Shown here piece after piece: positions 4,131 to 28,537 of a stretch of DNA of 64,000 nt. The stretch's first letter is position 1. Every line of letters begins with the position of its first letter. This DNA is from Bacteroides sp. AN502(2024) (lineage in GTDB: Bacteria; Bacteroidota; Bacteroidia; Bacteroidales; Bacteroidaceae). The stretch is from assembly GCF_041227145.1 (NCBI RefSeq), contig NZ_JBGFSP010000003.1, positions 3,472,001 through 3,536,000 on the forward strand, written 5' to 3'. A program made the position numbers and the translations under genes. The notes under the pieces were generated by a model. That model made no database searches. It was not told the origin of the DNA and saw nothing but the letters and a program-made list of their open reading frames with translations.

Positions 4131-4149
4131 AGTCGTGATATTAAGAAGA

Positions 4150-4312: not shown

Positions 4313-4314
4313 TT

Positions 4315-4402: not shown

Positions 4403-4408
4403 GTTACG

Positions 4409-9432: not shown

Positions 9433-10001
9433 AGGGCTTGTTTCTTGATACAAATTTTTAAATTTCGCTTTCCGTTCTGGATATAGCTTTTCACATTGTT
9501 CAGAGTGAATCCGGTCTGTTCCACAATGTCGGCATACGACATCTCTTCCAGGAAGAAACGCGTAATACTGGTCCGTTGTTCTTCGGGCAACTTTTCGAGA
9601 CAGTGATGCAATGCCTTTAGTTGTTCCTCCGAACTATCCTCTTCACTTAATAGATGCAGAAATTCGTCAGATTCCACAATATTAACCGTATAATCCAATG
9701 GAATTTCTTTATTTTCCTTCCTTAAAAGTTGCAGGCAATGATTCTTCGCCACCCGGTAGAGCCATGGCTTGAAAACTTTTATCTCGTAATTCCCCAGTTT
9801 AGGCAATAAATCTTCAAACAACTGCATGACTGCTTCCTGTGCCCGCTCCTCATCATGCAGGTATTTCAGGCAAAGTCCGTACAGTAACGGGATATATCGG
9901 TTATATAGTTCACCGAAATATTCCGTATCGCCGGACTTCATATAATGTATCAGTAATTCTTCGTCCGATAGTTTTGATATGTTTCTTTTGAAAAGCAACA
10001 T
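9429..10001 (-). CDS. ECF-type RNA polymerase sigma factor
   Basis: A 190-residue sigma-70 family protein. Region 2 (GDTEYFGELYNRYIPLLYGLCLKYLHDEERAQEAVMQLFEDLL, ~25-68) and region 4 (LPEEQRTSITRFFLEEMSYADIVEQTGFTLNNVKSYIQNGKRNL, ~138-182) are clear; regions 1.1 and 3 are absent, as in ECF sigmas. It forms an ATGA-overlapped pair with the TonB/anti-sigma-like gene. The divergent VWA gene at 10152 also carries a carboxypeptidase-regulatory domain and is a plausible target, since no TAnnTTTG box was seen in the 150-bp spacer. Confidence 0.9.
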   Translation of the reverse strand: MLLFKRNISKLSDEELLIHYMKSGDTEYFGELYNRYIPLLYGLCLKYLHDEERAQEAVMQLFEDLLPKLGNYEIKVFKPWLYRVAKNHCLQLLRKENKEIPLDYTVNIVESDEFLHLLSEEDSSEEQLKALHHCLEKLPEEQRTSITRFFLEEMSYADIVEQTGFTLNNVKSYIQNGKRNLKICIKKQAL

Positions 10002-10151
10002 CTATTGATTGCCAAAGATAGGAATTGGAACTAAAAATAACAACTGGAAGAAGAAAAATAAAAAAAAGTTCAAGTCATTTATGGAATCAGTGTGAAATCT
10101 GCATCTCTATAGTAAAAGCGAACGAATAGTAATAGGTTAAATAGTGAAGTT

Positions 10152-12005
10152 ATGAAAACAAATCAATTCAGAGCGATGATGCTCGTACTGCTGATGGCAG
10201 TTGTTTCTTTGGGTATGGTGAACGCGCAGGTTATTACCGTGTCGGGTAGGGTGACGGATGCAAAGGATGGAACTCCGCTTACCGGTTGTTCGGTACAGAT
10301 AAAGGGTACTGCGAAGGGTACGGTGACGGACGTGAATGGCCGGTATATGATACAGGCTCAGAAAGGAGAAACCTTGTTATTCCGGTTTATCGGGTATAGG
10401 CAAGAGAAAAGGGTGGTAAAATCGACTACGCTGGATGTGAAAATGAAAGCTGACAAATTGGCGTTGGAAGAGTGTGTGGTGGTAGGCTATGACCGTGAAC
10501 CCAGAGCGACAAAAGTGATGTCTGCTGCTTATCGTATGGCAGCATGTCCGGCACCGGGAGTCATGTATGATGCAGCAAATGCGGAAGAATATGGAGCGTT
10601 TCAGGAGAACGGTTTCAAGAGGGTGTCGGATGCTCCGCTTTCCACTTTCTCTATTGATGTAGACGCCGCTTCTTATAGTAATATGCGCCGTTTTATCAAT
10701 AAAGGTGAACTGCCTCCGATCGATGCTATCCGTACGGAAGAGTTAGTGAACTATTTTTCCTATGACTATCCGAAGCCGGCAGGGAGTGACCCAGTGAAAA
10801 TCGCGATAGAATCCGGAACCTGTCTCTGGAATACCAATCATCGTCTGGTACGGATCGGCTTGAAAGCGAAAGAGATACCGACGGATCATCTGCCTGCATC
10901 TAATCTGGTATTCCTGATTGACGTCTCCGGTTCTATGTGGGGAGCCAACCGGTTGGATTTGGTGAAATCATCTCTCAAATTATTGGTGAATAACTTACGT
11001 GATAAAGATAAAGTGGCTATCGTGACTTATGCAGGGAGTGCCGGTGTGAAACTGGAAGCTACTCCGGGCAGCGACAAGCAGAAGATTCGCGAAGCGATAG
11101 ATGAATTAACGGCAGGCGGTGCTACGGCAGGTGGTGCAGGTATCTTGTTGGCGTATAGAATAGCCAAGAATAATTTGATCTCTAATGGTAATAACCGGAT
11201 CATACTTTGCTCCGATGGTGATTTCAATGTGGGTGTTTCTTCGGCCGAAGGATTGGAACAATTGATTGAAAAAGAACGTAAGAGTGGAGTCGCCCTTACC
11301 GTACTGGGCTATGGCATGGGTAATTATAAGGATCAGAAGATTCAGGTGTTGGCAGAAAAGGGAAATGGCAATCATGCTTATATAGATAACTTGCAGGAAG
11401 CCAACCGTGTTCTGGTCGGTGAATTCGGTGCTACGTTGCATACGGTGGCAAAAGACGTCAAGTTGCAAGTCGAATTTAACCCTTCCCAAGTGCAGGCATA
11501 TCGTTTGATTGGTTACGAAAGTCGTCTGTTGAAAGACGAGGACTTTAATAATGACGCTAAAGATGCCGGAGATATGGGCGCGGGACATACGGTGACAGCC
11601 TTTTACGAAGTGGTTCCTATCGGAGCAAAGAATGAATATGCTGGTAAAATAGACGACTTGAAATATCAGAAGAAAGAGAAAGTGTCCGTGAATCCGACAG
11701 GCTCTCATGAACTCCTGACTGTGAAGCTGCGTTATAAAGCTCCGGATAAAGATATCAGCAAGAAAATGGAACTTTCTTTCGTTGACAGTAAGAGTAATAA
11801 TGTCTCTTCCGATTTCTGCTTTGCCTCTGCAGTGGCTATGTTCGGACAGTTACTCCGAGGGTCTGACTTTATAGGAAATGCCAGTTACGACCAAGTGATT
11901 GAGCTGGCCAAACAGGGACTGAATAAGGATGATAAAGGATATAGAAGAGAATTCATTCGTTTGGTTGAGGCTACTAAAGGATTGGAAAGAACGAATAAGA
12001 AATAG
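10152..12005 (+). CDS. exported von Willebrand factor A domain protein (YfbK-like)
   Basis: A 617-residue secreted or envelope protein. Signal peptide residues ~1-25 (ends MVNAQ), CarboxypepD_reg-like domain ~28-105 (SGRVTDAKDGTPLTGCSVQIKG), a von Willebrand N-terminal region with FSIDVDAASYSNMRRFI (~170), VWA domain ~240-420 with an intact metal site DVSGSM (DxSxS) and CSDGDFN, and a C-terminal DUF3520-like domain. This order matches YfbK-family proteins, whose function is not settled. It lies divergently from the ECF sigma operon and is followed by a repeat-rich, gene-free 630 bp. Confidence 0.88.
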   Translation: MKTNQFRAMMLVLLMAVVSLGMVNAQVITVSGRVTDAKDGTPLTGCSVQIKGTAKGTVTDVNGRYMIQAQKGETLLFRFIGYRQEKRVVKSTTLDVKMKADKLALEECVVVGYDREPRATKVMSAAYRMAACPAPGVMYDAANAEEYGAFQENGFKRVSDAPLSTFSIDVDAASYSNMRRFINKGELPPIDAIRTEELVNYFSYDYPKPAGSDPVKIAIESGTCLWNTNHRLVRIGLKAKEIPTDHLPASNLVFLIDVSGSMWGANRLDLVKSSLKLLVNNLRDKDKVAIVTYAGSAGVKLEATPGSDKQKIREAIDELTAGGATAGGAGILLAYRIAKNNLISNGNNRIILCSDGDFNVGVSSAEGLEQLIEKERKSGVALTVLGYGMGNYKDQKIQVLAEKGNGNHAYIDNLQEANRVLVGEFGATLHTVAKDVKLQVEFNPSQVQAYRLIGYESRLLKDEDFNNDAKDAGDMGAGHTVTAFYEVVPIGAKNEYAGKIDDLKYQKKEKVSVNPTGSHELLTVKLRYKAPDKDISKKMELSFVDSKSNNVSSDFCFASAVAMFGQLLRGSDFIGNASYDQVIELAKQGLNKDDKGYRREFIRLVEATKGLERTNKK

Positions 12006-16890: not shown

Positions 16891-17538
16891 TTATTCGTTT
16901 TTCATCCGGAAGTAAAATTTATGATTTTCGAATACGGGTTCCACAATGTCATACCGAACAAATTTGGCAAGCAGATGCTCGGCGGCACGTCGGGAAAGTC
17001 CGGTCTGGCGACAGTAACGGTTGAGTGAGAGGATAGTCCCGTGTTCCAGTTGGTCAAGCAGGAGCTGTTCACGTTCGGTGTATCGGATGAGTTCTCCACG
17101 GGGGCTGTCGCTCTGTTGCCATACACGGAGATGTACGGGGGTTGCCAGAATATTTTCATCCTTGATGCGGAGATAGGCCAGTGGCTTCCCTGTCTCGTCC
17201 TTGGCGTAAACCGGTTTATGTGGAGTCTCTTCGATGGTTGCCACCAGCACTTGCTTTCCTTCCACGATATATGTTTGCAGCGTATATTCCACTTCCGGCA
17301 TGCAATAAAGTTGTGCGGCGGCTTCTATCATATATTTCTCCTCTTCGGAGCGTACTCCGGCAATTTTACCATTGTCTTTAACGCCAATCAGTAATCGTCC
17401 TCCGTCCGTGTTGGCAAAAGCTGAAAGTGTTTTGGCAATTTTGCGTGCATCGGATATTTCGAATTTAAAATCCTGCTGTTGGTGCTCTCCTTCGGCAATC
17501 AGTGCATGTATATAATCGGTATCAGTAAGCGGTTTCAT
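16891..17538 (-). CDS. AlbA_2 (Schlafen-like) ATP-binding domain protein
   Basis: A 215-residue protein. Residues ~10-120 form an AlbA_2/SLFN-type domain: QDFKFEISDARKIAKTLSAFANTDGGRLLIGVKDNGKIAGV, the FANTDGG and GV(K/D) block being diagnostic. The C-terminal ~70 residues look like a winged-helix unit (LNRYCRQTGLSRRAAEHLLAKFVRYDIVEPV). It resembles transcriptional regulators or ATP-dependent helicase-associated proteins; its target is unknown. I start at the ATG at 17538 (MKPLTDTDY) because a -7 box sits five bases upstream, within the longer reading. Confidence 0.8.
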   Translation of the reverse strand: MKPLTDTDYIHALIAEGEHQQQDFKFEISDARKIAKTLSAFANTDGGRLLIGVKDNGKIAGVRSEEEKYMIEAAAQLYCMPEVEYTLQTYIVEGKQVLVATIEETPHKPVYAKDETGKPLAYLRIKDENILATPVHLRVWQQSDSPRGELIRYTEREQLLLDQLEHGTILSLNRYCRQTGLSRRAAEHLLAKFVRYDIVEPVFENHKFYFRMKNE

Positions 17539-17543
17539 GTCTA

Positions 17544-17551
17544 CAAAGGTA
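17544..17551 (-). promoter_or_regulatory. -7 box abutting the AlbA_2 gene start
   Basis: TACCTTTG followed by TAGAC and then the ATG at 17538: another case with no room for a leader. Confidence 0.5.
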
Positions 17552-17644
17552 GGTAAAAAAGGCAAAAAGCCTCTTTTTTAGATATTTTTCGAAGATTATT
17601 TTAAAAAAAATATTGATTTTATGCTTTTATTTCGGGAAACAGTG

Positions 17645-17652
17645 TATTTTTG
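17645..17652 (+). promoter_or_regulatory. -7 box for the histone H1-like gene
   Basis: TATTTTTG on the plus strand, 33 bp before the ATG at 17686. It excludes the in-frame TTG at 17650 as start. Confidence 0.6.
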
Positions 17653-17685
17653 TGGCACATTATTAACGAAAAAATAAAAAGGATT

Positions 17686-17862
17686 ATGAAAGAATTGGTA
17701 GAAAAAGTAGCAGCTCTTTATGCTGACTTCTCAAAAGATGCTAACGCACAGATTGAAAACGGTAATAAAGCAGCTGGAACTCGCGCTCGTAAGGCTTCTT
17801 TGGAAATCGAAAAAGCAATGAAAGAATTCCGTAAAGCATCTTTGGAAGCTTCTAAGAAATAA
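17686..17862 (+). CDS. histone H1-like DNA-associated protein
   Basis: A 58-residue, Lys/Ala-rich helical protein (MKELVEKVAALYADFSKDANAQIENGNKAAGTRARKASLEIEKAMKEFRKASLEASKK; shown only as composition: 12 Lys, no Cys). It matches the short Hc1-like proteins of Bacteroides thought to bind the nucleoid. It has its own -7 box and a strong terminator, the arrangement of an abundant single-gene transcript. Confidence 0.88.
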   Translation: MKELVEKVAALYADFSKDANAQIENGNKAAGTRARKASLEIEKAMKEFRKASLEASKK

Positions 17863-17898
17863 TAGATAGAAGACTACTTAGATATTAGAAAAAAGAGA

Positions 17899-17929
17899 GG
17901 GCATATCGTGTAACGATATGCCCTTTTTC
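17899..17929 (+). terminator. terminator of the histone H1-like gene
   Basis: GGGCATATCG/CGATATGCCC, a perfect 10-bp stem with a 5-nt loop, followed by TTTTT. Confidence 0.9.
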
Positions 17930-18074
17930 TGTTTTTAACGCAGAATGACTTTGGGTCGTTTTAATGCGGACCACTTTACAAACACACTCACTTTTTACAG
18001 TTTCTTCTTCCAACATATTATTAGTAACGAGAATACTCCTATATTTATTGTCTAAATTATTAATAAATCGAGAG

Positions 18075-19013
18075 ATGTTGAAAGTAGTAACATTTATGAA
18101 GCAAGTGGCCCGTGGGCTACAGATGGAGGGAAACTTTGGTACTGCTCATGTATACCGTAGCAGTCTCAATGCCATCATTGCGTATTGTGGGAAAGAAGAT
18201 TTCACCTTTGACGAGGTGAGTTCGGAGTGGTTAAAAGGATTCGAGGTACACCTTCGCAGTCGTGGCTGTAGTTGGAATACCGTTTCCACTTATTTGCGCA
18301 CGTTTCGTGCAGTTTACAATCGTGCCGTTGTTCTTCGTGAGGCAACTTATGTTCCCCACCTGTTCCGTTCAGTTTATACCGGAACTCGTGCCGACCATAA
18401 GCGTGCGTTGGATGAAGAGGATTTAAAGAAAGTATTTGCCGGATTTTCGCAATCCTTTGTCGTCTCTCCGTCCTTACGTCAGGCACAGGAGCTGTTTACC
18501 CTGATGTTTTTATTGCGCGGTTTGCCATTTGTCGACCTCGCCTATCTGCGTAAGAGTGATTTGCATGACAATGTGATCACGTATCGCAGGCGTAAAACAG
18601 GTCGTACCCTTTCTGTGACGCTGACTGCGGAAGCGATGATTCTGGTAAAGAGATATATGAACCGTGACAGTTCTTCTCCTTATCTGTTTCCTTTGTTGAA
18701 GAGCCGTGAAGGGAGTCCGGAGGCTTATCGTGAATACCAGCTGGCATTGCGCACCTTCAACCGCCAGCTGATGTTGCTGGGTGAATTGTTGGGACTGGGC
18801 GATAGATTAAGCTCCTACACCGCGCGGCATACTTGGGCTACGACAGCCTATTATTGTGAGATTCATCCGGGAATTATTTCCGAAGCGATGGGTCACTCTT
18901 CCATTACTGTGACCGAAACCTATTTGAAGCCTTTCAGGGATAAGAAAATAGATGAGGCCAATAGGCGGGTAATCGATTTTGTAAATCGTACAGTTAGCAT
19001 TGCAATTTGTTGA
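18075..19013 (+). CDS. tyrosine recombinase (DNA invertase type)
   Basis: A 312-residue tyrosine recombinase. The N-terminal SAM-like core-binding domain (~1-105) precedes the catalytic domain, where the conserved residues can be placed: Arg in FLLRGLPFVDLA, Lys in RRRKTG, His/Arg in SSYTARHTWAT, His in MGHSS and Tyr in TETYLKPF. The short, Arm-domain-free form and the adjacent inverted repeats are those of Bacteroides Tsr/Mpi promoter invertases, not of conjugative-element integrases. It ends 6 bp before the left inverted repeat. The start at 18075 (MLKVVTFMKQVARG) is preferred over a longer hydrophobic reading from 17964. Confidence 0.9.
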   Translation: MLKVVTFMKQVARGLQMEGNFGTAHVYRSSLNAIIAYCGKEDFTFDEVSSEWLKGFEVHLRSRGCSWNTVSTYLRTFRAVYNRAVVLREATYVPHLFRSVYTGTRADHKRALDEEDLKKVFAGFSQSFVVSPSLRQAQELFTLMFLLRGLPFVDLAYLRKSDLHDNVITYRRRKTGRTLSVTLTAEAMILVKRYMNRDSSSPYLFPLLKSREGSPEAYREYQLALRTFNRQLMLLGELLGLGDRLSSYTARHTWATTAYYCEIHPGIISEAMGHSSITVTETYLKPFRDKKIDEANRRVIDFVNRTVSIAIC

Positions 19014-19019
19014 TAAATA

Positions 19020-19042
19020 GCCCGTTACTTTGTAGGTAACGG
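19020..19042 (+). repeat. left inverted repeat (recombination site)
   Basis: Left copy of the 23-bp inverted repeat; 6 bp after the recombinase stop codon. Confidence 0.9.
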
Positions 19043-19057
19043 AATTAAATATCGGTG

Positions 19058-19089
19058 CAAAGATGAGTATATTTATTAAAACATCCAAA
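19058..19089 (-). promoter_or_regulatory. promoter inside the invertible segment
   Basis: On the minus strand TTTG (19089-19086), a 20-bp spacer, then CATCTTTG (19065-19058), one base off TAnnTTTG, followed by C. The -33/-7 spacing fits the Bacteroides consensus. A second, perfect -7 box (TATATTTG, 19139-19132) also faces left but lacks a clear -33. Confidence 0.6.
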
Positions 19090-19304
19090 CGAAATCGTAC
19101 ATTTTTTCCAATAAATTACTTAAAAAAGGAACAAATATAGAAGAACACGTGGATTCTTTGTCTTAGAACGGTGTCAACGTCTAAATTTTGCAATAGATTC
19201 CCCTCCCCTCTACTTTTTCAGATAAGCAGGGGTTAGAAGATTCGTTATATATCGTGGTATTTTCCAGTATAGACTACTCTCAAAGAGCAGGCACAAAGGT
19301 TTTC

Positions 19305-19327
19305 CCGTTACCTACAAAGTAACGGGC
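19305..19327 (-). repeat. right inverted repeat (recombination site)
   Basis: Right copy of the 23-bp inverted repeat, 172 bp before the S-layer-like gene. Confidence 0.9.
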
Positions 19328-19408
19328 AGAGGATATTATCATATATACATTAAATGCACAATATGAAGGAAAAAGTCAAATGAATTAAGAAAAGGAGGTC
19401 GCATAAAG

Positions 19409-19474
19409 ATGAAAGGAATGAAAATGAATTTTGAGATGAAGAATCTGAAAACTATATTCTTATTATTTTTTTAA
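19409..19474 (+). CDS. 21-codon leader ORF upstream of the S-layer-like gene
   Basis: A short frame, MKGMKMNFEMKNLKTIFLLFF, with a strong Shine-Dalgarno (AAGGAGG, 8 bp upstream), which is unusual for Bacteroides. It ends 25 bp before the S-layer-like ATG and would be in the transcript only when the invertible promoter is ON. It may be a translated leader affecting expression of the main gene, or a former start of that gene's signal peptide. No homologue is claimed. Confidence 0.4.
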   Translation: MKGMKMNFEMKNLKTIFLLFF

Positions 19475-19499
19475 TTTATAAATTAAAAGTTTTTTTATT

Positions 19500-22400
19500 A
19501 TGAACAAAAAGTATTTAAGTGTCGTCCTGTTTGGAGCACTATTAGCGGCTTCGGCGGGTACATTTACTTCTTGTAAAGACTATGATGATGACATCAAGGG
19601 GCTACAAGAACGAATTGACGGAAATCAAAGCTCCGTTGCAGCTCTTGAAAAACAGCTGGCTACTTTAGACGCTGCCGCTAAGGCTGCACAAACGGCTGCC
19701 GATAACGCTAAAACGGCTGCTGAAGCTGCTCAGGCAGAAGCAGAAGCTGCCAAAGCTGTCGGTGACCAAGCTGCTGCCGAGGCTGCGCAGGCTAAACGTG
19801 ACGCTCAAGCTGCACAGGTGGCTGCTAATAATGCTAAAGTGGAAGCCATCGAAGAAGCTAAAAAGCAAGTGGAAGCGTTGAAGGTTCTGTTGCAAGAGTC
19901 TATCAACGGAAAGGTTGACGTGGAGGTCTTTGAAGCAGCCCAAACTGCAATTGGAGGTAAAATTGCAGGTATCGAAGAGAGATTGAACAACCTGGATCCG
20001 GATCAGGTGGCCGAAGACATGCGTGATGCGAAGCAGGCTATCGCAACTTTGATGGCAGCATACGAAAACTTGAAAATTCAGGAGGCTACATTAAATGAAT
20101 ATAAAGAAGCTTGTCTTGATTACACTGCCAATGCTGAGGCGATCAAGAAAGCCGTAGAAGATATCGGCACTGCTCAAACAGAAATTGAGAAGCTGTGGAA
20201 TGAAATCAACGGTGAAGGCGGACTGAAAGAACTGATTGGCGGTAATACAACAGCTATTTCGAATCTGACGACCCAGACTGCTAAAGATATAGAGAATCTG
20301 GAAAACCGTATCAATGGTCAGCTGACAGATATTAAAGATGATATCAAAGACAATATCAAACCGGCTATTCTTGCTATTCAAAACCAAATCAGAGACGAAA
20401 TCAAACCTGACTTGGATCAATTGCACATATTGGTGGTAGCCCGTTTGTCAAGTATCACATTTGCTCCGGATTATATCGTAGACGGTGTTGAAGCGATCAA
20501 GTTCAGCTCGTTGAAGTATGGTGCGATGGACAAGAGTGAAAATGCAGCAATCCCTACTACTTATAAATTCTCTACAGCTGCTTTGGCAACTGCCAGCTAC
20601 CACTTCAATCCGGCTAGCTTCAAGTTGGCTAACGCAGACTATAGCTACATTGACCGCACCGTTACAGTGGTTAACACTCGTGCTGCTGCCAGCAAGTGGG
20701 TTGAAATCAGTGGCGAACCGGTGGCTAATGCTGAAAAGGGTACGGTTGACTTCAAGCTGCTTCGTCTGAACGCTCACTCAACTCAGCCGGAAAAGAGCGA
20801 TGTGAACATGATAGCTTTGCAGGCTACCTTGAAAGGTGATGCTGTTGACAAAAAGGAAACAGGTGCAGTTGTAACTTCTCCATACGTATCTGTCTACGAC
20901 GAAGTACTGGATGCATCGGATGTACGTATTGCCGATGATGCTACTTTGACTGAATTTGGAGCTGATGCTCATTATGCAACCACATTTGATGCATGTAAAG
21001 AAGAAGAACCTCGATACAAGATGTATTACAACGAAGTGTTTGATTTGAAAGACTTGGTGGCAACTTGTTTCGGTGACAATGAAGAAACCAATATCCATCG
21101 TAAATTCCCGATCGAAGACTATAACCTGTCGTATAGATTTGCCGTAGCAAGTTCTGAATATAAAATTTCAACAGGAGGAACTATTACCGACCAGCAGAAG
21201 AACATCCTGTGTAACGATGCTGAAGAAGGTTTGTTCCAGGCTAAAGATTTCAGCAGAGAAGCTATCGGTCGCACTCCGATCTTTAAAGTTGAACTGGTTG
21301 ATGCTGACGGTAATGTAGTACGTCGTGGTTTCGTAAAAGTGGCAATCGGAGTTGCTAAGAGTGATGATATGATTCTGCCTATGAGTTGTGGAACATTGAC
21401 CTACGAATGTGCATCAACGACTGCTAAATATGAGATATCAGAAGAATACATTATTGAGAACCTGTATCGTAAGATTGCAAACAGTCTTGGTGAAGTGGGT
21501 ATGAGCCACGAAGAATTCTGGAATCTGTATGATGTTTCTGCAGCTACAACTATTGTAACGAAGAACGGTCAGGCTTATGCAATGTCGTCAGTACCTCAAA
21601 TCGTAGACGGTCCTACTGCAGCCGGAGTTGCAACTAAGAAGATTGTTTGGTCATTCAAACATAGTGAACTTGGCAAGATCGGTAATACTTCTGCTTTCGT
21701 AGCAAGCATTACTGTGAAGAATAAACTGGCTTCTTCCGAATATCCTGCTGCTGTAACATTCAAATTCACACTTGAAGTGAAGTTGCCGGCATTTACAGAA
21801 ACGCTGACTAAGAATGAAATCTATTGGACTTTAAACAATATTTCAGATGACTTTGATGTGAATGTAACTGTTCCGAATAAGATTGACGAGGCTGCTGAAA
21901 ACTGTCAGTTCAGTCAAGATCTGAAAGTAGCTTATAAAACACACAAAGTAGAAGGACTGCCCGAATGTGTTACAGATTATTATCAGATAACCGAAACCAA
22001 ATCTAATGGTAAAGCTACTGCGACTGTATTGTCCGGTGTTAAGATCAATGGAACTGTAATCTCTTTGGATAAGAATGATGCTGCGGTTCAGAAGGCATTG
22101 AACAGCGAAGGTGGTCTGCAGGCTGTAGTTAAACATGTTTATAGACTGGAGAGCGATGATGAACTTTCACAACATAGCTTTGTGGTTAACTTCATCCGTC
22201 CGGTTAATTTGAATATGCCGAGTGGCATGTCTTTGCAGGATGCCAAGACCGGTGGTGATATCGCTAACTTCCAGCACAATAACCTGTTGACAGACTGGAG
22301 AGGTGAAGCAATTACTGCTCCTGGATCGGAACTTGTTACAGAAAGTAAATCTTATTGGAACTACAAGTATACTCCGAAGTACGAATATGTTGACGGTCAC

Positions 22401-23168
22401 TATGTACAGACACAAGAAGCCAAGTTGAATGTGAAAACTGAAGAAGTATCCTTCATTGCTACTAAACCTGTGACTATGTATAACGTAAAAGCAACATATA
22501 CATATAGCCTATGGGTAGGTGGTACTGAGGCAACTGCAGGATATCAAGAAAAAGCGAGAGAGACTTTTGAAGGTAATGGAGAGACTATGAGTGATGCAAT
22601 GATGCAGATTGAGGCTCAAGTTACCGCTAAGAAGGCGACGGATTGGAAAATGTACACTTATGCAATAGTAAAACAGGAGGGAGAGCCTGTTGTAACTACT
22701 AGCGTTGTTCCGAAAGATGAAGAGGTTAAATACACTTACGTATCAGGTATCGAGTATACTCCGGCTAAGTACGAATGGATTGATGGTACTTGGGAAGAAG
22801 TTAAACATGACCACTCTGACATGCCTGACTTCGCCGGATCAAAGGATGGAGAAACAGCCGGATGCGGATGCTATGTATGGATTACTGAAACATCCCAAAC
22901 TACTCAACCGATTCCCGGACAATTCTGGGACTTCTATGGACCATTCGGCGACGTTAAATTGGATGTAACGAAAGCTACTACCGATCTGTCTGACGGTAAA
23001 TTGCCTAGCGGTGCTACTTTGGTTCAGGAAGGTAATACTGTTAAGTATGTAAATGTTCATTCACCGGTAGGATCTGAATATAAGATCTTCATCCCTGCTA
23101 CTGTAAATTACGGTTGGGGTACTGCTACTTCTCAGTTGACTATTGTGGTGAAACCCGTTAAGAAGTAA
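19500..23168 (+). CDS. S-layer-like surface protein, phase-variable
   Basis: A 1222-residue exported protein. N-terminal lipoprotein-type signal (lipobox FTSC, Cys near 25) and then CKDYDDDIKGLQ, an Ala/Glu/Lys-rich coiled coil to about residue 300 (repeats of AAEAAQAEAEAA type), followed by ~900 residues of probably beta-rich domains with no enzymatic motif. The build and the pairing with a following OmpA-family gene, an upstream invertase and an invertible promoter match the phase-variable S-layer locus described for B. thetaiotaomicron (BT1927-BT1926, from memory). Database annotation of such proteins as PL29 lyase N-terminal regions reflects the coiled coil only. The product is probably a surface-covering protein whose expression switches on and off. 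Confidence 0.8.
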   Translation: MNKKYLSVVLFGALLAASAGTFTSCKDYDDDIKGLQERIDGNQSSVAALEKQLATLDAAAKAAQTAADNAKTAAEAAQAEAEAAKAVGDQAAAEAAQAKRDAQAAQVAANNAKVEAIEEAKKQVEALKVLLQESINGKVDVEVFEAAQTAIGGKIAGIEERLNNLDPDQVAEDMRDAKQAIATLMAAYENLKIQEATLNEYKEACLDYTANAEAIKKAVEDIGTAQTEIEKLWNEINGEGGLKELIGGNTTAISNLTTQTAKDIENLENRINGQLTDIKDDIKDNIKPAILAIQNQIRDEIKPDLDQLHILVVARLSSITFAPDYIVDGVEAIKFSSLKYGAMDKSENAAIPTTYKFSTAALATASYHFNPASFKLANADYSYIDRTVTVVNTRAAASKWVEISGEPVANAEKGTVDFKLLRLNAHSTQPEKSDVNMIALQATLKGDAVDKKETGAVVTSPYVSVYDEVLDASDVRIADDATLTEFGADAHYATTFDACKEEEPRYKMYYNEVFDLKDLVATCFGDNEETNIHRKFPIEDYNLSYRFAVASSEYKISTGGTITDQQKNILCNDAEEGLFQAKDFSREAIGRTPIFKVELVDADGNVVRRGFVKVAIGVAKSDDMILPMSCGTLTYECASTTAKYEISEEYIIENLYRKIANSLGEVGMSHEEFWNLYDVSAATTIVTKNGQAYAMSSVPQIVDGPTAAGVATKKIVWSFKHSELGKIGNTSAFVASITVKNKLASSEYPAAVTFKFTLEVKLPAFTETLTKNEIYWTLNNISDDFDVNVTVPNKIDEAAENCQFSQDLKVAYKTHKVEGLPECVTDYYQITETKSNGKATATVLSGVKINGTVISLDKNDAAVQKALNSEGGLQAVVKHVYRLESDDELSQHSFVVNFIRPVNLNMPSGMSLQDAKTGGDIANFQHNNLLTDWRGEAITAPGSELVTESKSYWNYKYTPKYEYVDGHYVQTQEAKLNVKTEEVSFIATKPVTMYNVKATYTYSLWVGGTEATAGYQEKARETFEGNGETMSDAMMQIEAQVTAKKATDWKMYTYAIVKQEGEPVVTTSVVPKDEEVKYTYVSGIEYTPAKYEWIDGTWEEVKHDHSDMPDFAGSKDGETAGCGCYVWITETSQTTQPIPGQFWDFYGPFGDVKLDVTKATTDLSDGKLPSGATLVQEGNTVKYVNVHSPVGSEYKIFIPATVNYGWGTATSQLTIVVKPVKK

Positions 23169-23280: not shown

Positions 23281-24381
23281 ATGAAAATAAGAAGTTTGTT
23301 ATTATTATCTCTGTTGACTGTCGGTGGTACTATTGCTATGGCACAGGAGCTGCGGAAGATCAAGGAGGAAGGTCAGACCGTGTTCAAACCTCATTGGTTT
23401 ATGCAGGTACAGGCGGGAGCTGCCCACACAGTAGGCGAAGCCGGTTTTACCGATCTGATTTCTCCGGCAGCTGCTCTGAATGTGGGCTATAAGTTCGCTC
23501 CGGCATTCGGTGCACGTATCGGTGTCAGCGGTTGGCAGGCAAAAGGAGGCTGGGTAACTCCGGAACAAACATACAAGTATAAATATCTGCAAGGCAATCT
23601 GGATATCATGGCAGATCTCAGTACTTTGTTTGGTGGTTTTAATCCGAAACGTGTATTCAACGGATATATTTTTGGCGGTGTAGGATTGAATCGTGGTTTT
23701 GATAATGACGAGGCGAATGCACTGGATACAAAAACTCATGAACTTGAATACCTATGGCAGGAAGGTAAAATTCTCCCTACAGGGCGTTTCGGACTGGGTT
23801 GTGACCTTCGTCTGAATGATCGTTTGTCCATCAATATCGAAGGAAATGCAAACGCTCTTTCCGATAAATTCAATTCCAAAAAGGCGGGTAACTGCGACTG
23901 GCAGTTCAATGCTTTGGTAGGTGTGAGCATCAAACTGGGTAAGAGCTACACTAAAACTGCCCCAGTTTATTACGAACCGGAACCCATCGTAGCGGAACAA
24001 CCGAAGCCGGCTCCTGTAGTGGAACAGCCACAGCCAAAAGAGGAAGTGGTGGTAGCAGTACAGCCGATGAAACAAAATGTATTCTTTGCTTTAAACTCTG
24101 CAAAGATTCAGAAGGATCAGCAAGCTAAGATTCTTTCTTTGGTTGAGTACTTGGAGAAACATCCTGCAGCTAAGGTGAGCGTGACCGGTTATGCCGACGC
24201 GGAAACGGGCAATCCTAAAATCAATCATAAATTGTCCGAAAAACGTGCAAACAATGTGGCCGAAGCTTTGAAGGCAAAAGGTATTGCTGCTGATAGAATC
24301 ACTGTTGATTATAAAGGTGATACAGTTCAGCCGTATCATACTCCTGAAGAAAATCGGGTAAGTATTTGTATTGCTGAGTAG
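23281..24381 (+). CDS. OmpA-family outer-membrane protein
   Basis: A 366-residue protein: signal peptide (~1-20, ending AMAQ), an eight-stranded-barrel-like N-terminal half (~30-220, with alternating hydrophobics and terminal LVGVSIKLGKSY), a Pro/Glu-rich linker (PKPAPVVEQPQPKEEVVV) and a C-terminal OmpA-like domain (~255-366) with VSVTGYADAETGNPKINHKLSEKRANNVAEAL, the peptidoglycan-binding block. It probably anchors or accompanies the S-layer-like protein encoded just upstream. Confidence 0.88.
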   Translation: MKIRSLLLLSLLTVGGTIAMAQELRKIKEEGQTVFKPHWFMQVQAGAAHTVGEAGFTDLISPAAALNVGYKFAPAFGARIGVSGWQAKGGWVTPEQTYKYKYLQGNLDIMADLSTLFGGFNPKRVFNGYIFGGVGLNRGFDNDEANALDTKTHELEYLWQEGKILPTGRFGLGCDLRLNDRLSINIEGNANALSDKFNSKKAGNCDWQFNALVGVSIKLGKSYTKTAPVYYEPEPIVAEQPKPAPVVEQPQPKEEVVVAVQPMKQNVFFALNSAKIQKDQQAKILSLVEYLEKHPAAKVSVTGYADAETGNPKINHKLSEKRANNVAEALKAKGIAADRITVDYKGDTVQPYHTPEENRVSICIAE

Positions 24382-24509
24382 GTAGGGATAAGAATAAACA
24401 ATATTACCCCATTTCTCATGAGCGAGTTCTTCCCCGATACTTTATATATCTTTGTATAAGGTACTCTCGCATTGAGAAACGTTAAGAAGTACGCCCTTGT
24501 GAAAGCCCG

Positions 24510-24517
24510 TACTTTTG
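24510..24517 (+). promoter_or_regulatory. -7 box of a small transcript
   Basis: TACTTTTG on the plus strand. Another match (TATCTTTG) lies at 24447-24454. Both point at the 24544-24658 small-transcript candidate. Confidence 0.5.
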
Positions 24518-24523
24518 TAATCA

Positions 24524-24660
24524 AACCCTTTCTTCATTTAACTATGGAGATTACATTAGGGAATAGTGGGATAGGTCGTGCCTGTGAAAGTACATCTTTT
24601 CCATAAGCTATTTCCAGTTAGAGGATGCCGTCCTTTTCCCACAGGCATCCTCTTTTTTAT
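24524..24660 (+). ncRNA. candidate small RNA or small-ORF transcript with attenuator-like folding
   Basis: A promoter at 24510 and a strong terminator at 24621-24658 delimit about 135 nt. Inside is a 20-codon frame (24544-24606, MEITLGNSGIGRACESTSFP). TGCCTGTG (24579-24586) is complementary to CACAGGCA (24640-24647), which overlaps the 3' half of the terminator stem, so two exclusive foldings exist. No downstream plus-strand gene is present to be attenuated, which favours an sRNA. No homology claimed. Confidence 0.4.
24621..24658 (+). terminator. terminator of the small transcript
   Basis: GAGGATGCC/GGCATCCTC, a perfect 9-bp stem with a 14-nt loop and TTTTTT tail. Confidence 0.85.
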
Positions 24661-24901
24661 TTATGCTGGACTGCTTCACTGTCAATCAGTTTTATAGTCT
24701 CATCAGTCTCATCTAATAGTCTCATTGGTCTCATTTATAGTCTCATTTACAGTCTCCTCTTCCATGATAGCAAGAGAGCCGTTTCCAAGACACCGAAACC
24801 CCGGGCTTTCACAAGTCCGGGGCTTCTCCATTGAAAAATTGGAATCAATAAAATAATAACTACAAAACAACAACTATAAAATGGCCAGACACAAAAGAGA
24901 T
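24661..24901. other. gene-free interval with short repeats and a GC-rich hairpin
   Basis: Contains several copies of agtctcat at irregular 9-13-bp spacing (24697-24756) and a hairpin CCCCGGGCTT/AAGTCCGGGG (24799-24822) that may end the minus-strand endolysin transcript. The hairpin includes a 14-bp sequence that is the exact inverse of 24496-24509. No gene seen. Confidence 0.5.
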
Positions 24902-25351
24902 TTATTCTTTATCCCAGTCCGTTTCGGCATTGAAGCAGGGGCAGGCTTTGATCCACTCTTCCGGTTCAATCTCACCGTTTCCGTTCAGATCGGGGCTAAG
25001 GTCGCGATGTCCGCAGACGCGGCACTGGGGAAAGTCTTTTAGTAAAGTCAGGATCAGGACCCGTAGCGAATGTTTCTGCCAACAGGTACGTGTGTCTTTC
25101 GGTTGTCCCTTGCAGTCCAGACCGCCTTCATAACAGATGCCGATGCTCTCCCGGTTGAAACCTTGGCTGTGTGCGCCGATCTGTTCTATCGGGCGGGTAG
25201 ACTTGATATCCCCATTCTTGCGGATATAGAAATGATACCCTGGTCCCTTGAAACCGCGGCGGCGGTGGCAGACGTCCAAATCATGTTCGGTGAAGGATTT
25301 GTCTTCGCGTGTTGCCGAGCAATGGACAACAATCAGATTAACTGTTCTCAT
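24902..25351 (-). CDS. phage-type N-acetylmuramoyl-L-alanine amidase (endolysin)
   Basis: A 149-residue Amidase_2/T7-lysozyme-like enzyme that cuts the bond between muramic acid and the stem peptide. The zinc ligands can be placed: His in IVVHCSAT, His in CGHRDLSPD and Cys in the ACPCF motif; GYHFYIRKNGDI and GINRESIG-like NRESIGICYEGG are typical. No signal peptide, as in endolysins. It overlaps the preceding gene by 4 bp (ATGA). The same gene group recurs in Bacteroides as a prophage-like module. Confidence 0.9.
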   Translation of the reverse strand: MRTVNLIVVHCSATREDKSFTEHDLDVCHRRRGFKGPGYHFYIRKNGDIKSTRPIEQIGAHSQGFNRESIGICYEGGLDCKGQPKDTRTCWQKHSLRVLILTLLKDFPQCRVCGHRDLSPDLNGNGEIEPEEWIKACPCFNAETDWDKE

Positions 25352-25677
25352 ACGCTATCGGGTGTTGGGGAGGTGGATGATGATTCGGATTCGGAACCTT
25401 TGTTGCGCTGGATACACTCTTTCTTGACACATTGCAAGGTCACAGCTTCCGAGAGCTTGCCTTTGAGTGAAAAGATCTCCGAGTGCATCTCCTTCACACA
25501 ATCGCTCAAATTGAAATAATCTTTTAATACCTTTTCGAGCTGTTGCATGAGAAAGCTATATTGCTCTTTCACCAGTTCGCTGAACTCTTTGACTTCCTGC
25601 AGCATTTGCTGACGCTTTTTGCGACCCCCGAGAAAGGGGAGAATCGACATGATAATATCTATGATTTTGTCTAACAT
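25348..25677 (-). CDS. small protein with N-terminal hydrophobic segment, endolysin partner
   Basis: A 109-residue protein: hydrophobic start (MLDKIIDIIMSILPFL), a basic GGRKKRQQ stretch, then a coiled coil (~30-80) and a Ser/Thr-rich tail. It has no named domain. The position directly upstream of, and overlapping, the endolysin suggests a holin-like or spanin-like accessory, but this is inference. The longer reading from 25794 crosses a hairpin and is rejected. Confidence 0.65.
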   Translation of the reverse strand: MLDKIIDIIMSILPFLGGRKKRQQMLQEVKEFSELVKEQYSFLMQQLEKVLKDYFNLSDCVKEMHSEIFSLKGKLSEAVTLQCVKKECIQRNKGSESESSSTSPTPDSV

Positions 25678-25751
25678 CCGGATTGATTTAAAAATTAAAG
25701 ACTGAAAATGAAAATGAGAAAAGGGAAAATGATGGAAGAGAGAGAACAGAA

Positions 25752-25798
25752 ACCACATGGCAAGGAACAGGCACGAGTCAGTTCCTGAAACCATGTGG
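25752..25798 (-). terminator. long hairpin after the HU-like gene
   Basis: CCACATGG/CCATGTGG with an inner AGGAAC/GTTCCT stem. It is 60-100 bp past the HU-like stop codon with only a weak T tract, so it is either a terminator or a processing hairpin. Confidence 0.45.
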
Positions 25799-25855
25799 AA
25801 CTGTTTTTAAGGATGCAATGTCACCCCGTCGGAGAGGGACGTGCGGGCAAAACCG

Positions 25856-26353
25856 TTAGGCGGTAGGATTCGGAGCCTCTTCGTCAACCGGTTTGTCTTC
25901 CGAACCATCGTCTTCGGAACCGCTGCCATCGCTCTTGCCGCTCAGGACGAAGTCTACATTGTTATCGCTTCGCGTACTCGTATGGCTCGAATTCATCAGC
26001 TTCAAAGCCTTGTCGGCAACAAAGCGTACATTGACGCGGCGGATACAGCGTACCGTACAATCTCTCATAGCCTCCGTACCGTCGCTGGTCAGCGTGATAT
26101 GGAACGTACCCAATCCGTCGATTTTCACCTTGTCGCCTTGGGTGAGCGACAGACGCAACTGCTCTACAAATGCCTCGATGGTGTGTTTCACATCACCGGC
26201 GGTCAGTGCCGATTTACTCTCGATGGCGCTCGCCAATGTGTCGATGTCCATCACTCTGACATTGCCCGATTTCTTACGTATGTAATACAACAACGGAGCA
26301 TCCTCCTGGTTTACATACTTTCTGCGTTGATAGCGTTCTACTAATACATCCAT
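25856..26353 (-). CDS. HU-like DNA-binding protein with acidic tail
   Basis: A 165-residue member of the Bacteroides HU-like family. Residues ~35-125 have the HU/IHF fold pattern (DIDTLASAIESKSALTAGDVKHTIEAFVEQLRLSLTQGDKVKIDGLGTFHITL), preceded by ~30 extra residues and followed by an acidic, Ser-rich tail (SGSEDDGSEDKPVDEEAP). It belongs to the endolysin/helicase module. Confidence 0.85.
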   Translation of the reverse strand: MDVLVERYQRRKYVNQEDAPLLYYIRKKSGNVRVMDIDTLASAIESKSALTAGDVKHTIEAFVEQLRLSLTQGDKVKIDGLGTFHITLTSDGTEAMRDCTVRCIRRVNVRFVADKALKLMNSSHTSTRSDNNVDFVLSGKSDGSGSEDDGSEDKPVDEEAPNPTA

Positions 26354-26540
26354 AATTTTGAAAAGTTAAGGTTTAAGTGAATAATCATATCTTTCTTTCT
26401 GATAATACAAATATACAAAATAAAAAGGGAAAAGTCAAGTAAAAACGGATTTATTTTCTTTTAATTTATAAAAAATATTTATTCAAAATATATTCATGAA
26501 AAGGGTATGCATTGTACTGTCATTTGTATAACAGATCCTC

Positions 26541-27902
26541 TTATTTGGCATGTTTTTCGAAATATTCCAATGGCGGGATATAGTCATATATTTTTGTCAT
26601 AGACCGGTTGTGCCCGAAATAGACATTCCCCGTTTCTCCGTTGCGCTGTTTTGCCACGATGGCTACCCCCAGTCCCTCTGTCGGGTAGCCGCTTTCCCGA
26701 TCGGTGGCGATGCGTTGCATGGCGGGGCGATAAAGCAGCATAACCACGTCCGCGTCCTGCTCAATGGCTCCGCTCTCACGCAGGTGTGCCAGTTCGGGAC
26801 GTCCTCCGGGACGGTTTTCCGACTCCCGGTTGAGCTGGCTGAGCAACACGATGGGGATCTGTAGCTCCTTGGCAAGCAGCTTGGCTTTCCGGGTGGCTTG
26901 TGCCACCTCCTGTTCCCGGTTGCGGTTGCCCTGTTTGCCGGTCATGTCGCAGAGTTGCAGGTAGTCGATGATAATCATGTCACACTGCCGGCGGCTCTTC
27001 AACAGCCGGGCACTGGAACGGATGTGCTCCATGCTGACCGAAGCGTTGTCGTCCACGTAGATGGGGAGTCTGGAGAGTTCCAAGGCCGTGGTGCGTGCGT
27101 TTTCCATCTCTTCCGCGGTGGGTATGCCGTTTCTCCACCGGTAGGGGTTGATATGTCCGGTCGCTGCCAGCCATCGGTCGGCGAGTCGTTCTCCCTGCAT
27201 CTCGAGGCTGTAAACGGCCACTGTGTTGCCTGCCATTGCCGCATGACGTGCCAGGTGTAGGGCAAAAGCCGTTTTCCCTACGGAGGGGCGGGCGGCGATG
27301 ATGATGAGATCGCTGTTCTGCAGTCCGCCAGTTTTCTGGTCGAGGTCGGTCAGTCCGGTGGGGATGCCGGTCACCCCGTTCACGCTTTTGGCAATGCGTA
27401 GTTCGGCCTCTTTCAGGGTATCGGTCATCAGCGTATCCATACAGCGCATGTGTTCGTGGTGTCCGGACTCCCCTTCCAGGCGGTCGAGCAGGTTGTGTGC
27501 ATCGATCAGCGTGTCGTAGATGTCGATTGTTTCATCCATGGCGCAGGTGAATAGCTTGTTGAAGCCGACCACCGCTTCCCGTGCCAGGTATTTCTGGTGT
27601 ACGATTTGTGCATGGTATTCGATATGTGCGGAGGAGGCTACCCGGCTGCTCAGCCGGGTGATGGCATACGGTCCGCCTGCCTTTTCGAGCGTTCCTCGTC
27701 GGGTGAGCTCTTCTTTGACGGTGAGTATGTCGATCTTCTTGTTGGCCTGATACATGGCGATCAGAGCGGCAAAAATCAGTTGGTGAGACTCTTCGTAGAA
27801 CATGTCGGGGCGTAGCTTGTCGGCTACGAGCGGCAGTGCTTCCTGTTCGATCAGGCAGGCACCAATGATGGCTTCTTCGAGTTCGCTGGCGTGTGGTTGC
27901 AT
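26541..27902 (-). CDS. DnaB-type replicative helicase
   Basis: A 453-residue DnaB-family helicase. N-terminal domain ~8-110 (ASELEEAIIGACLIEQEALPLV), RecA-like core ~180-450 with Walker A AARPSVGKTAFALHLARHA, Walker B MIIIDYLQL, and the RESGAIEQDADVV and VAKQRNGETG blocks. The ATG at 27902 gives MQPHASELEE; the longer reading runs through the neighbour gene in another frame. It is 14 bp after the HTH gene. A second DnaB besides the housekeeping one is usual for prophage or island replication modules. Confidence 0.92.
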   Translation of the reverse strand: MQPHASELEEAIIGACLIEQEALPLVADKLRPDMFYEESHQLIFAALIAMYQANKKIDILTVKEELTRRGTLEKAGGPYAITRLSSRVASSAHIEYHAQIVHQKYLAREAVVGFNKLFTCAMDETIDIYDTLIDAHNLLDRLEGESGHHEHMRCMDTLMTDTLKEAELRIAKSVNGVTGIPTGLTDLDQKTGGLQNSDLIIIAARPSVGKTAFALHLARHAAMAGNTVAVYSLEMQGERLADRWLAATGHINPYRWRNGIPTAEEMENARTTALELSRLPIYVDDNASVSMEHIRSSARLLKSRRQCDMIIIDYLQLCDMTGKQGNRNREQEVAQATRKAKLLAKELQIPIVLLSQLNRESENRPGGRPELAHLRESGAIEQDADVVMLLYRPAMQRIATDRESGYPTEGLGVAIVAKQRNGETGNVYFGHNRSMTKIYDYIPPLEYFEKHAK

Positions 27903-27916
27903 CTTTTTTCGATTTT

Positions 27917-28537
27917 TTAGTTGGTATATTCGTTTAAGAAAGCCTTGTCTCTCAGGTAAGTGGAGGCAAGCGGGATGAAGCGTATGTCGTTGGTGTGGTA
28001 GTAGACCTCTTCGATCCGGTCGATGGCGAGCTGCCGCTCCTCTTGGGGCAGCTTGTCCCATTCGCGGCGGGCGCGGGCGATGTTCTGCTTGGGCTTTTGC
28101 ATCGTTTCATGATACTTGTCCCAAAAGAGATAGAAGGATTCGGTATTTTTTTTCTTGTTCGCTTCGCGCGTCTCCGGAGAGAGCGTTCCGGTCCAGAAAT
28201 CATAATCGATGATGTGGATATGGAAGACGTTTTTGGGGTGGGGGATGATTTTGATGAGACCCTCTTTCTCGATTGTCTGGAAAAAACGGGCGGTTTTGCT
28301 GCGGCTCCATTGAAAGAGTTCGCTCCAGCGTCGCAGGCTGATGGCGGACTCTCCACGCTGGCATACGATGTCGACCATCTGAATCTTGTACGTGATTTCC
28401 GAGTAGTTGGCACGTGTCAGGATCTGGAGGAGTGCTTTCAGTTCTTCCGAATTTTTTTCGTTGACCAGGCATTTTAACCATGCTTTGGGGAGCAGGATAT
28501 ACCCTTCTTTCAGGAGCTCTTTGGACGATTGTTTCAT
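27917..28537 (-). CDS. HTH replication-type protein upstream of dnaB-like gene
   Basis: A 206-residue protein. The N-terminal half reads as a winged-helix DNA-binding unit (LLPKAWLKCL, ISLRRWSELFQWSRSKTARFFQTIEKEGLIKI, ~20-105); the C-terminal half is helical and basic (KPKQNIARARREWDKLPQEERQLAIDRIEEVYYH), like replication-initiation or DnaA/DnaT-like loaders of phages. Helicase loading is inferred from its position 14 bp before the helicase gene. Confidence 0.7.
   Translation of the reverse strand: MKQSSKELLKEGYILLPKAWLKCLVNEKNSEELKALLQILTRANYSEITYKIQMVDIVCQRGESAISLRRWSELFQWSRSKTARFFQTIEKEGLIKIIPHPKNVFHIHIIDYDFWTGTLSPETREANKKKNTESFYLFWDKYHETMQKPKQNIARARREWDKLPQEERQLAIDRIEEVYYHTNDIRFIPLASTYLRDKAFLNEYTN

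What the first reader, a model, noticed from the sequence alone, without database searches (positions are those of the whole stretch)
19020..19499. Invertible promoter in front of an S-layer-like gene, in the apparent OFF orientation
A perfect 23-bp inverted repeat bounds 262 bp that contain a -33/-7 pair (TTTG, 20 bp, CATCTTTG) on the minus strand, right after a tyrosine recombinase gene and before a 1222-aa surface protein gene. The only promoter elements point away from that gene. Known: Bacteroides Tsr/Mpi recombinases flip such promoters, and an S-layer locus of B. thetaiotaomicron is phase-variable. Inference: this locus switches the coat on and off and the assembled clone is mostly OFF.
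Basis: partly seen in the sequence, partly recalled or inferred. Interest (0 to 1): 0.85.

Follow-up and report, generated by a model that had tools for sequence, protein, structure and literature searches.

The report
OFF-facing flip switch before coat gene
This Bacteroides genome carries a short promoter segment beside a recombinase gene that would likely flip like a light switch and is predicted to turn a surface-coat gene on or off; here the promoter points away from that gene, and the switch is one more member of a kind already known in gut Bacteroides.

Summary
The structure is real. A perfect 23-bp inverted repeat (19020-19042/19305-19327) bounds 262 bp with a -33/-7 promoter (19058-19089, minus strand); 20 shuffles of the window reached at most 14 bp. 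A tyrosine-recombinase gene lies just left, a 1222-aa lipoprotein-like gene and an OmpA-family gene right. The repeat fits the published consensus of the B. thetaiotaomicron BT1927 switch and its sister loci, so the switch type is known. Flipping was not observed here.

Corrections: the surface protein and its partner show no BLASTP similarity to the BT1927-type pair; they belong with BT4480/BT1512. Two further promoter matches do point toward the gene.

New: in 27 of 27 scorable coat-type switches, this one included, the promoter points away from the coat gene. This genome has four, all OFF, and four capsule switches, one ON. Spacers agree in 59 of 59 pairs with exact half-sites. The window's cassette is 99% identical to one 2.8 Mb away before a different coat gene. 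The OFF promoter fires into its own recombinase gene 45 nt away, suggesting, untested, FimE-like self-locking.

The parts
18030..19328 (+). switch cassette (recombinase gene plus invertible segment plus both repeats), 99.15% identical to a second cassette at about G000:C3:665 kb
   Evidence: 1299 bp ungapped, 11 mismatches; identity ends at the outer edge of the right repeat and about 45 bp before the recombinase start
18075..19013 (+). tyrosine recombinase, 312 aa, motifs LRGLPF, RRRKTGR, YTARHTW and Tyr283 present
   Evidence: Phage_integrase 2.2e-14, Phage_int_SAM_5 2.6e-18; XerC-like 4a8e; catalytic role of the motifs recalled
19020..19042 (+). left inverted repeat: half-sites GTTAC 19024-19028 and GTAAC 19036-19040 around the 7-nt spacer TTTGTAG 19029-19035
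19043..19304 (.). invertible segment, 262 bp
19058..19089 (-). predicted Bacteroides-type promoter TTTG-N20-CATCTTTG, pointing away from the coat gene and toward the recombinase 3' end
   Evidence: TTTG and CATnTTTGCA invariant in 27 of 27 aligned segments
19205..19232 (.). conserved GC-rich hairpin element in the middle of the segment (CCCCT...AGGGG), function unknown
   Evidence: alignment columns 96-122: the eight outer pairs hold in at least 25 of 27, two inner pairs fail in 6 of 27
19305..19327 (-). right inverted repeat, spacer complement 19312-19318
19328..19499 (+). leader of the coat gene
   Evidence: no -33/-7 match at the stringency used for the segment; predicted ON promoter would end 210 nt before the ATG
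19500..23168 (+). coat-type surface protein, 1222 aa: lipoprotein-like signal with Cys25 followed by KDYDDD (read by eye), Ala-rich stretch, beta-rich remainder; BT4480/BT1512 subfamily
   Evidence: ORF; no Pfam match; weak coiled-coil-type matches 29-257; relatives; low-confidence model, Ig/cadherin-like matches
23281..24381 (+). OmpA-family outer-membrane protein, 366 aa, likely partner of the coat
   Evidence: OmpA 5.5e-16; a second copy, 87% identical, lies at G000:C3:728623-729723, next to the L009 coat gene

Best explanation
A perfect 23-bp inverted repeat beside a tyrosine-recombinase gene bounds a 262-bp promoter segment that is predicted to be flipped by that recombinase and so would likely switch a probable surface-coat lipoprotein gene and its OmpA partner on or off, and in this assembly the predicted promoter points away from the coat gene. 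Each arm holds two inverted half-sites (GTTAC/GTAAC) around a 7-nt spacer, as expected for a tyrosine-recombinase site (inferred). In the present orientation the promoter is predicted to transcribe leftward, through the left repeat and into the 3' end of the recombinase gene, leaving the coat gene without a promoter (OFF, inferred). After inversion the promoter would sit at 19258-19289, 210 nt before the coat ATG (computed), and the coat and OmpA genes would be expressed (inferred). Shown here: the anatomy, the match to the published repeat consensus, the paired spacers in relatives, and the outward promoter in 27 of 27 scorable coat-type switches, this one included. Not shown: inversion, transcription, surface display, lattice formation.
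For: Repeat, promoter and gene order. Far above chance. Recombinase open with expected motifs. The right arm CCGTTACCTACAAAGTAAC fits the published consensus CCGTTACCTABVRAGTAAC for BT1927 and seven further loci, and an inversion was called from long reads at the sister capsule site GTTACTTCTTAGGTAACGGA of B. xylanisolvens (PMC12118408, passages). With any spacer allowed, 59 of 59 pairs with exact half-sites near a recombinase have identical spacers; spacer columns 7/301, 8/300 and 9/299 change together in 27 of 27 segments. Promoter elements invariant in 27 of 27. Orientation OFF in 27 of 27 coat-type switches, in line with the reported rate of about 1 in 1,000 BT1927-expressing cells in wild-type culture (PMC12548429, introduction). 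One of four capsule switches in this genome reads ON, so the orientation rule is not stuck on one answer.
Against: No reads, PCR or RNA data: inversion and OFF are inferred from one assembly per genome. The -7 box is CATnTTTG, not the consensus TAnnTTTG. Two further promoter matches of the same stringency point toward the coat gene. Related loci are not independent samples. One relative with a coat-type leader that my motif rule put in the class 'other' (L124) reads ON. 14 of 73 loci with a recombinase hit show no pair with identical spacers under the rule, among them L112 with an 81% identical recombinase. The coat identity is inferred; no similarity to BT1927.
Confidence: 0.85

Rival explanations
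1. The orientation call is backwards: the present form is ON, driven by a plus-strand promoter inside the segment or by one in the leader.
For: Plus-strand matches at 19157-19190 and 19187-19218, with as many mismatches as the main promoter; a generic sigma-70-like match at 19431-19458; the 27 scorable coat-type switches share this orientation, which would also fit an always-ON gene.
Against: The near-arm minus-strand promoter is invariant in 27 of 27 and sits where 6 of 6 capsule switches keep a TTTG/TAnnTTTG box; the inward matches are missing in several relatives, e.g. L019 and L022. For BT1927, papers report most cells unexpressed, and the two assemblies with the exact BT1927R primer (L097, L100) read OFF by the same rule.
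Confidence: 0.07
2. The repeat is a relic: the segment no longer inverts and the coat gene is permanently silent.
For: The 27 scorable coat-type switches all read OFF; no read evidence here.
Against: Perfect 23-bp arms, open recombinase and coat reading frames, and spacer pairs kept identical through changes in 59 of 59 pairs with exact half-sites, which decay would not preserve.
Confidence: 0.05
3. The sites mainly serve exchange between loci (shuffling of cassettes or large inversions) rather than local ON/OFF inversion.
For: The window cassette is 99% identical to one 2.8 Mb away before another coat gene; its segment is 98.8% identical to that of L009, with which it shares the spacer.
Against: The shared tract with L009 starts inside the recombinase gene (about 18800), not at the left repeat, which fits homologous gene conversion; the spacer differs between the window and L011b. 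Local inversion needs nothing beyond what is present.
Confidence: 0.04

Closest known systems
BT1927-BT1926 phase-variable S-layer locus of B. thetaiotaomicron (Taketani 2015, not held; described in PMC12548429 and PMC12578637)
   Same: Invertible promoter between matching repeats (window arm fits the published consensus), site-specific integrase near it, surface lipoprotein followed by an outer-membrane partner, OFF as the majority state.
   Different: Coat and partner show no BLASTP similarity to the BT1927-type pair of L097; recombinase of L097/L100 about 62% identical; spacer TTCTTAG in L097 and L100 against TTTGTAG here.
BT4480 and BT1512 candidate S-layer loci of B. thetaiotaomicron (primers in PMC12548429 Table 2)
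   Same: Homologous coat: BT4480-type 57% (L022, both BT4480 primers exact), BT1512-type 53% over full length (P0097, assigned by short primer-encoded peptides that many relatives share); OmpA partner 79% identical in L022.
   Different: Different species and allele; spacer TTTCTAG in L022 against TTTGTAG here.
Capsule (CPS) invertible promoters with UpxY (PMC12118408, passages)
   Same: Same GTTAC/GTAAC half-sites, own tyrosine recombinase; four in this genome.
   Different: The four share the spacer TTCTTAG; recombinases 38-40% identical; target is UpxY.
E. coli fimS/FimE switch (PMC9993118, passages)
   Same: Tyrosine recombinase gene next to the invertible promoter; strong OFF bias; in fimS, orientation alters fimE mRNA through a detachable Rho-dependent terminator.
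   Different: No second recombinase like FimB seen at this locus; any effect of orientation on recombinase expression is only inferred here from geometry.

Membership tests
Bacteroides tyrosine-recombinase promoter switch of the BT1927/CPS type | repeat matching CCGTTACCTABVRAGTAAC in inverted pair | tested here: met
   against the consensus printed in PMC12118408
Bacteroides tyrosine-recombinase promoter switch of the BT1927/CPS type | adjacent tyrosine recombinase with catalytic residues | tested here: met
   (motif roles recalled)
Bacteroides tyrosine-recombinase promoter switch of the BT1927/CPS type | promoter inside the segment near one arm | tested here: met
   (sequence only)
Bacteroides tyrosine-recombinase promoter switch of the BT1927/CPS type | both orientations present in a population | not testable with these tools
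   no reads available
BT1927/BT1926 S-layer pair | homologous coat protein | tested here: not met
   best BLASTP E 0.75 against the BT1927-type protein in L097
BT1927/BT1926 S-layer pair | homologous outer-membrane partner | tested here: not met
   best BLASTP E 0.49
BT1927/BT1926 S-layer pair | crystalline lattice on the cell | not testable with these tools
   needs electron microscopy
BT4480/BT1512 candidate coat subfamily | full-length homologous coat plus OmpA-family partner | tested here: met
   BT4480 assigned by exact primers, BT1512 by primer-encoded peptides
surface-exposed lipoprotein | lipobox Cys followed by an acidic export signal | tested here: inconclusive
   TSC25-KDYDDD read by eye; motif recalled, no predictor run
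Mpi-type serine invertase switch | serine recombinase | tested here: not met
   Phage_integrase-type (tyrosine) domains only in the adjacent gene
FimE-like orientation control of the recombinase | OFF promoter faces the recombinase gene at close range | tested here: met
   45 nt in the window; recombinase stop 10 bp from the 17-bp site core in 21 of 26 measured coat-type loci
FimE-like orientation control of the recombinase | recombinase expression depends on orientation | not testable with these tools
   needs strand-specific RNA data

The most novel reading that the evidence does not exclude
A self-locking, transferable coat switch: in the OFF form the promoter fires straight into its own recombinase gene and silences it by antisense transcription, so OFF is nearly absorbing while ON cells make recombinase and fall back; the recombinase-plus-promoter cassette is copied by gene conversion from one coat gene to another, and in relatives it has become an either/or selector between two divergent coat genes.
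Probability: 0.2. Interest if true: 0.62.

Novelty: new member of a known kind. Interest (0 to 1): 0.42.

Why it matters
Phase-variable coats and capsules help decide which gut Bacteroides survive phages and host defences. The locus extends a known switch to a coat subfamily whose function I found untested, and the census gives testable numbers: coat switches OFF in 27 of 27 scorable cases and, in this genome, one of four capsule switches ON and four of four coat switches OFF. If the OFF promoter silences its own recombinase, that would explain why BT1927 is reported ON in only about one cell in a thousand, a bias whose cause I did not see explained in the passages read. Copying of the cassette between loci would explain how coat proteins without detectable similarity came under one kind of switch.

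Tried and rejected
Direct equivalence with BT1927: rejected.

Site-specific exchange of the promoter segment between loci (cassette exchange by the recombinase): suggested (segments 98.8-99.6% identical while the recombinase flank of L009 is 77%), but one search put the left end of the window-L009 tract inside the recombinase gene (about 18800), so ordinary gene conversion is preferred.

Segment identity as a simple clock beside recombinase identity: in the unfiltered list of 28 pairs with recombinase flanks at least 79% identical, segment and recombinase agree within 5 points in 20, but the differences range from -23.7 to +13.1; segments and recombinases often part ways in both directions, so one discordant pair proves little by itself.

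Spacer as an address label that keeps neighbouring switches from recombining: neighbours under 20 kb share a spacer in 0 of 6 pairs against 17 of 77 distant same-genome pairs, Fisher p = 0.34, not significant.

Rfam: no match for 17500-20000 up to E 0.5. Structure of residues 301-1222: mean pLDDT 63, pTM 0.35 from six sequences; the best Foldseek matches are tandem Ig/cadherin-like chains and a bacterial S-layer assembly domain with TM-scores of about 0.10-0.14 by query, so only 'string of beta domains' is taken. The coat's best match among solved chains has E 0.75.

Rows dropped: short or duplicate loci (L001-L008, L010, L014, L021, L095, L096, L098; L020, L128, L131, L135 before the count); loci with the recombinase inside the segment left out of the count; 13 rows there had no scorable promoter, one of them a second pairing at L149. 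A site pair beside a broken recombinase copy (second pair of L020) never entered the table. One search used 31 cassettes; values that involve L108 at 419 are invalid for the recombinase flank because the stretch starts inside that gene. One search tested spacers only at loci that had already passed a spacer filter (62 of 73 pairings identical, L149 counted twice), so one search repeated it without that filter.

Full report
WHAT IS THERE. The window has a perfect inverted repeat, GCCCGTTACTTTGTAGGTAACGG at 19020-19042 and its complement at 19305-19327, with 262 bp between. No other perfect repeat 60-1000 bp apart in the 64 kb exceeds 17 bp, and 20 dinucleotide-preserving shuffles gave 12-14 bp. 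Each arm is itself a palindrome of two GTTAC/GTAAC half-sites around a 7-nt spacer. Left of it, ending at 19013, is a 312-aa tyrosine recombinase (Phage_int_SAM_5 and Phage_integrase; nearest solved chain a XerC-like recombinase) with the expected motifs and Tyr283 (the role of these motifs is recalled). Right of it are a 1222-aa ORF (19500-23168) and, 112 bp later, an OmpA-family gene (23281-24381).

PROMOTER. The minus strand carries TTTG-N20-CATCTTTG at 19058-19089. A match that close to an arm is found in 49 of 2000 shuffled segments. In an alignment of 27 segments, the window's included, TTTG and CATnTTTGCA are invariant.

HOW MANY, AND WHICH WAY. The window's genome holds nine such site pairs and one single near-match taken as chance. 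A search with any spacer counted 14 exact sites there, and by my own tally the arms read account for those 14. Four pairs lie before coat-type genes (window, L009, two in L011), four before UpxY capsule genes, one before another surface-type operon (L012); each has its own recombinase. The four coat switches read OFF; of the capsule switches three read OFF and one, L015, reads ON; L012 has no scorable promoter. Over the loci with a site pair and a recombinase beside it, with duplicates and recombinase-inside layouts left out, coat-type switches read OFF in 27 of 27 (window included), capsule switches OFF in 5 of 6, other targets OFF in 15 of 17 with 13 further rows unscorable. One locus classed 'other', L124, has a coat-type leader and reads ON. 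Most coat homologues showed no such pair in the fetched flank (pairs in 11 of 77 loci, one spurious). The loci are related and are one assembly each, so the numbers show a bias, not a rate. They agree with the report that about 1 in 1,000 wild-type B. thetaiotaomicron cells express BT1927 (PMC12548429, introduction) and that most cells do not transcribe it (PMC12578637, passages).

SITES THAT MUST MATCH. With no demand on the spacer, 59 pairs of sites with exact half-sites, 200-1700 bp apart, were found near recombinase hits in 73 loci; 59 of 59 have identical spacers, as do 7 more pairs with one inexact half-site. 14 of the 73 loci gave no identical-spacer pair by that rule, L112 (81% identical recombinase) among them. 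In the 27 aligned segments the variable spacer columns change together without exception. This is what a tyrosine recombinase that needs matching crossover regions would enforce (known for the enzyme class, recalled; inferred here).

WHAT THE COAT IS. BT1927R of PMC12548429 matches the DNA of G001 and G142 exactly, inside the 940-aa ORF of L097 (G001, taken to be B. faecis), and the peptides of both BT1927 primers, NGVEWNK and VPTTDLKK, are printed in that protein. BLASTP finds nothing between it and the window protein (best E 0.75), nor between the partners. The window protein is instead 57% identical to the L022 protein, which carries both BT4480 primers exactly, 53% to P0097, a B. thetaiotaomicron protein holding the peptides of the BT1512 primers, which many relatives share, and 82-83% to the B. 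faecis protein of L018. It begins like a lipoprotein (TSC25-KDYDDD, by eye), continues with an Ala-rich stretch that weakly matches coiled-coil proteins, and is beta-rich beyond (low confidence). 'Coat' is therefore an inference from family company; a lattice has been reported only for BT1927 in what I read.

CASSETTE COPYING. Window 18030-19328 (recombinase, both repeats, segment) is 99.15% identical without gaps to the cassette of L011 at 9866-10165, 2.8 Mb away. Identity stops at the outer edge of the right repeat and about 45 bp before the recombinase start, while the coat proteins behind are 24.6% identical. Two of the 11 differences are the same spacer change in both arms (TTTGTAG against TTCGTAG). 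With L009 the window shares a shorter tract, from about 18800 inside the recombinase to the right repeat. So the segments of the window, L009 and L011b are 98.4-99.6% identical, whereas the window's segment is only 65.0% identical to that of L018, the species counterpart with an 83% identical coat and an 81% identical leader. Paralogues in one genome being far more alike than counterparts across species is the mark of gene conversion (inferred). The copied L011b cassette sits beside a groEL-like gene, as does L103 of another genome, whose leader is 91% identical to that of L011b while recombinase and segment are 80% and 78.5%, a weak hint that L011b was the one overwritten. Against a simple reading: in 28 pairs with recombinase flanks at least 79% identical, segment and recombinase agree within 5 points in 20, but the differences run from -23.7 to +13.1, and some distant pairs have segments far more alike than recombinases (L009-L151: 88.4 against 64.4); so exchange or uneven rates are general in this family.

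HOW IT MOST LIKELY WORKS. The recombinase inverts the segment (inferred). In the inverted form the promoter would lie at 19258-19289, 210 nt before the ATG, and coat and OmpA would be made. In the present form the promoter would transcribe into the recombinase 3' end, 45 nt from the -7 box. The recombinase stop lies 10 bp from the 17-bp site core in 21 of 26 measured coat-type loci. In E. coli fimS the orientation also controls fimE through a detachable Rho-dependent terminator (PMC9993118, passages). By analogy the OFF form here may lower its own recombinase and lock itself; this is a proposal, with no RNA evidence.

KNOWN OR NEW. The repeat consensus CCGTTACCTABVRAGTAAC near integrases, surface proteins and OmpA genes at BT1927 and seven further loci, and CCGTTACCTAAGAAGTAAC at four capsule operons, are printed in PMC12118408 (passages), together with long-read evidence for one inversion at the sister site in B. 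xylanisolvens. The switch is thus a new member of a known kind. I saw no paper on cassette copying, on antisense control of these recombinases, or on either/or coat switches of this type in the listings; beyond the passages named I did not open the listed papers, and the library lacks the two founding papers, so this is weak evidence of absence.

Noticed in passing
L128 3389-4919 (same locus as L072, Bacteroides muris) and L135 3502-4651 (same as L052, Mediterranea massiliensis MAG): The recombinase lies inside a 1.1-1.5 kb invertible segment between two divergent coat-type genes whose starts are about 65-101 bp from the site cores: predicted either/or coat selector. In L128 the promoter faces the right-hand gene; in L135 no consensus promoter was found; the two coats of L135 are 27% identical.
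   Followed up: partly
L126, L131 (same as L084), L142, L143: Recombinase inside the invertible segment but only one coat gene within 600 bp; the promoter faces away from it in all four.
   Followed up: partly
window 19205-19232 and alignment A1 columns 96-122: A GC-rich hairpin element in the middle of the AT-rich segment: eight outer pairs hold in at least 25 of 27 segments, a few through changes on both sides; two inner pairs fail in 6. Not among the terminator-like hits; function unknown.
   Followed up: partly
L013, L015, L016, L017: Of four capsule switches in this genome exactly one (L015) reads ON while the four coat switches read OFF.
   Followed up: partly
L112 (G001:C29), recombinase at 4348-5283: A recombinase 81% identical to the window's stands without a recognisable site pair beside it.
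   Followed up: no
L012 4634-4935: A ninth switch with spacer TTAGTAG and a 44% identical recombinase stands before surface-type genes and has no consensus promoter.
   Followed up: no
window 4149-4313: A perfect 17-bp inverted repeat, 131 bp apart, with nested repeats between a CutC-like and an RNase Y-like gene (names by eye); looks like a small palindromic element, and the pattern searched is unique in the genome.
   Followed up: partly
window 24496-24815: Perfect 14-bp inverted repeat (CTTGTGAAAGCCCG) 292 bp apart downstream of the OmpA gene, no recombinase seen beside it; 14 bp also occurs in shuffles.
   Followed up: no
window 24902-28547; also L018 1-1248, L099 2684-4685, L109 1879-3968: A DnaB-like helicase and a small replication-type gene (in the window also amidase-like and HU-like genes; names by eye) recur near coat loci in several genomes.
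   Followed up: no
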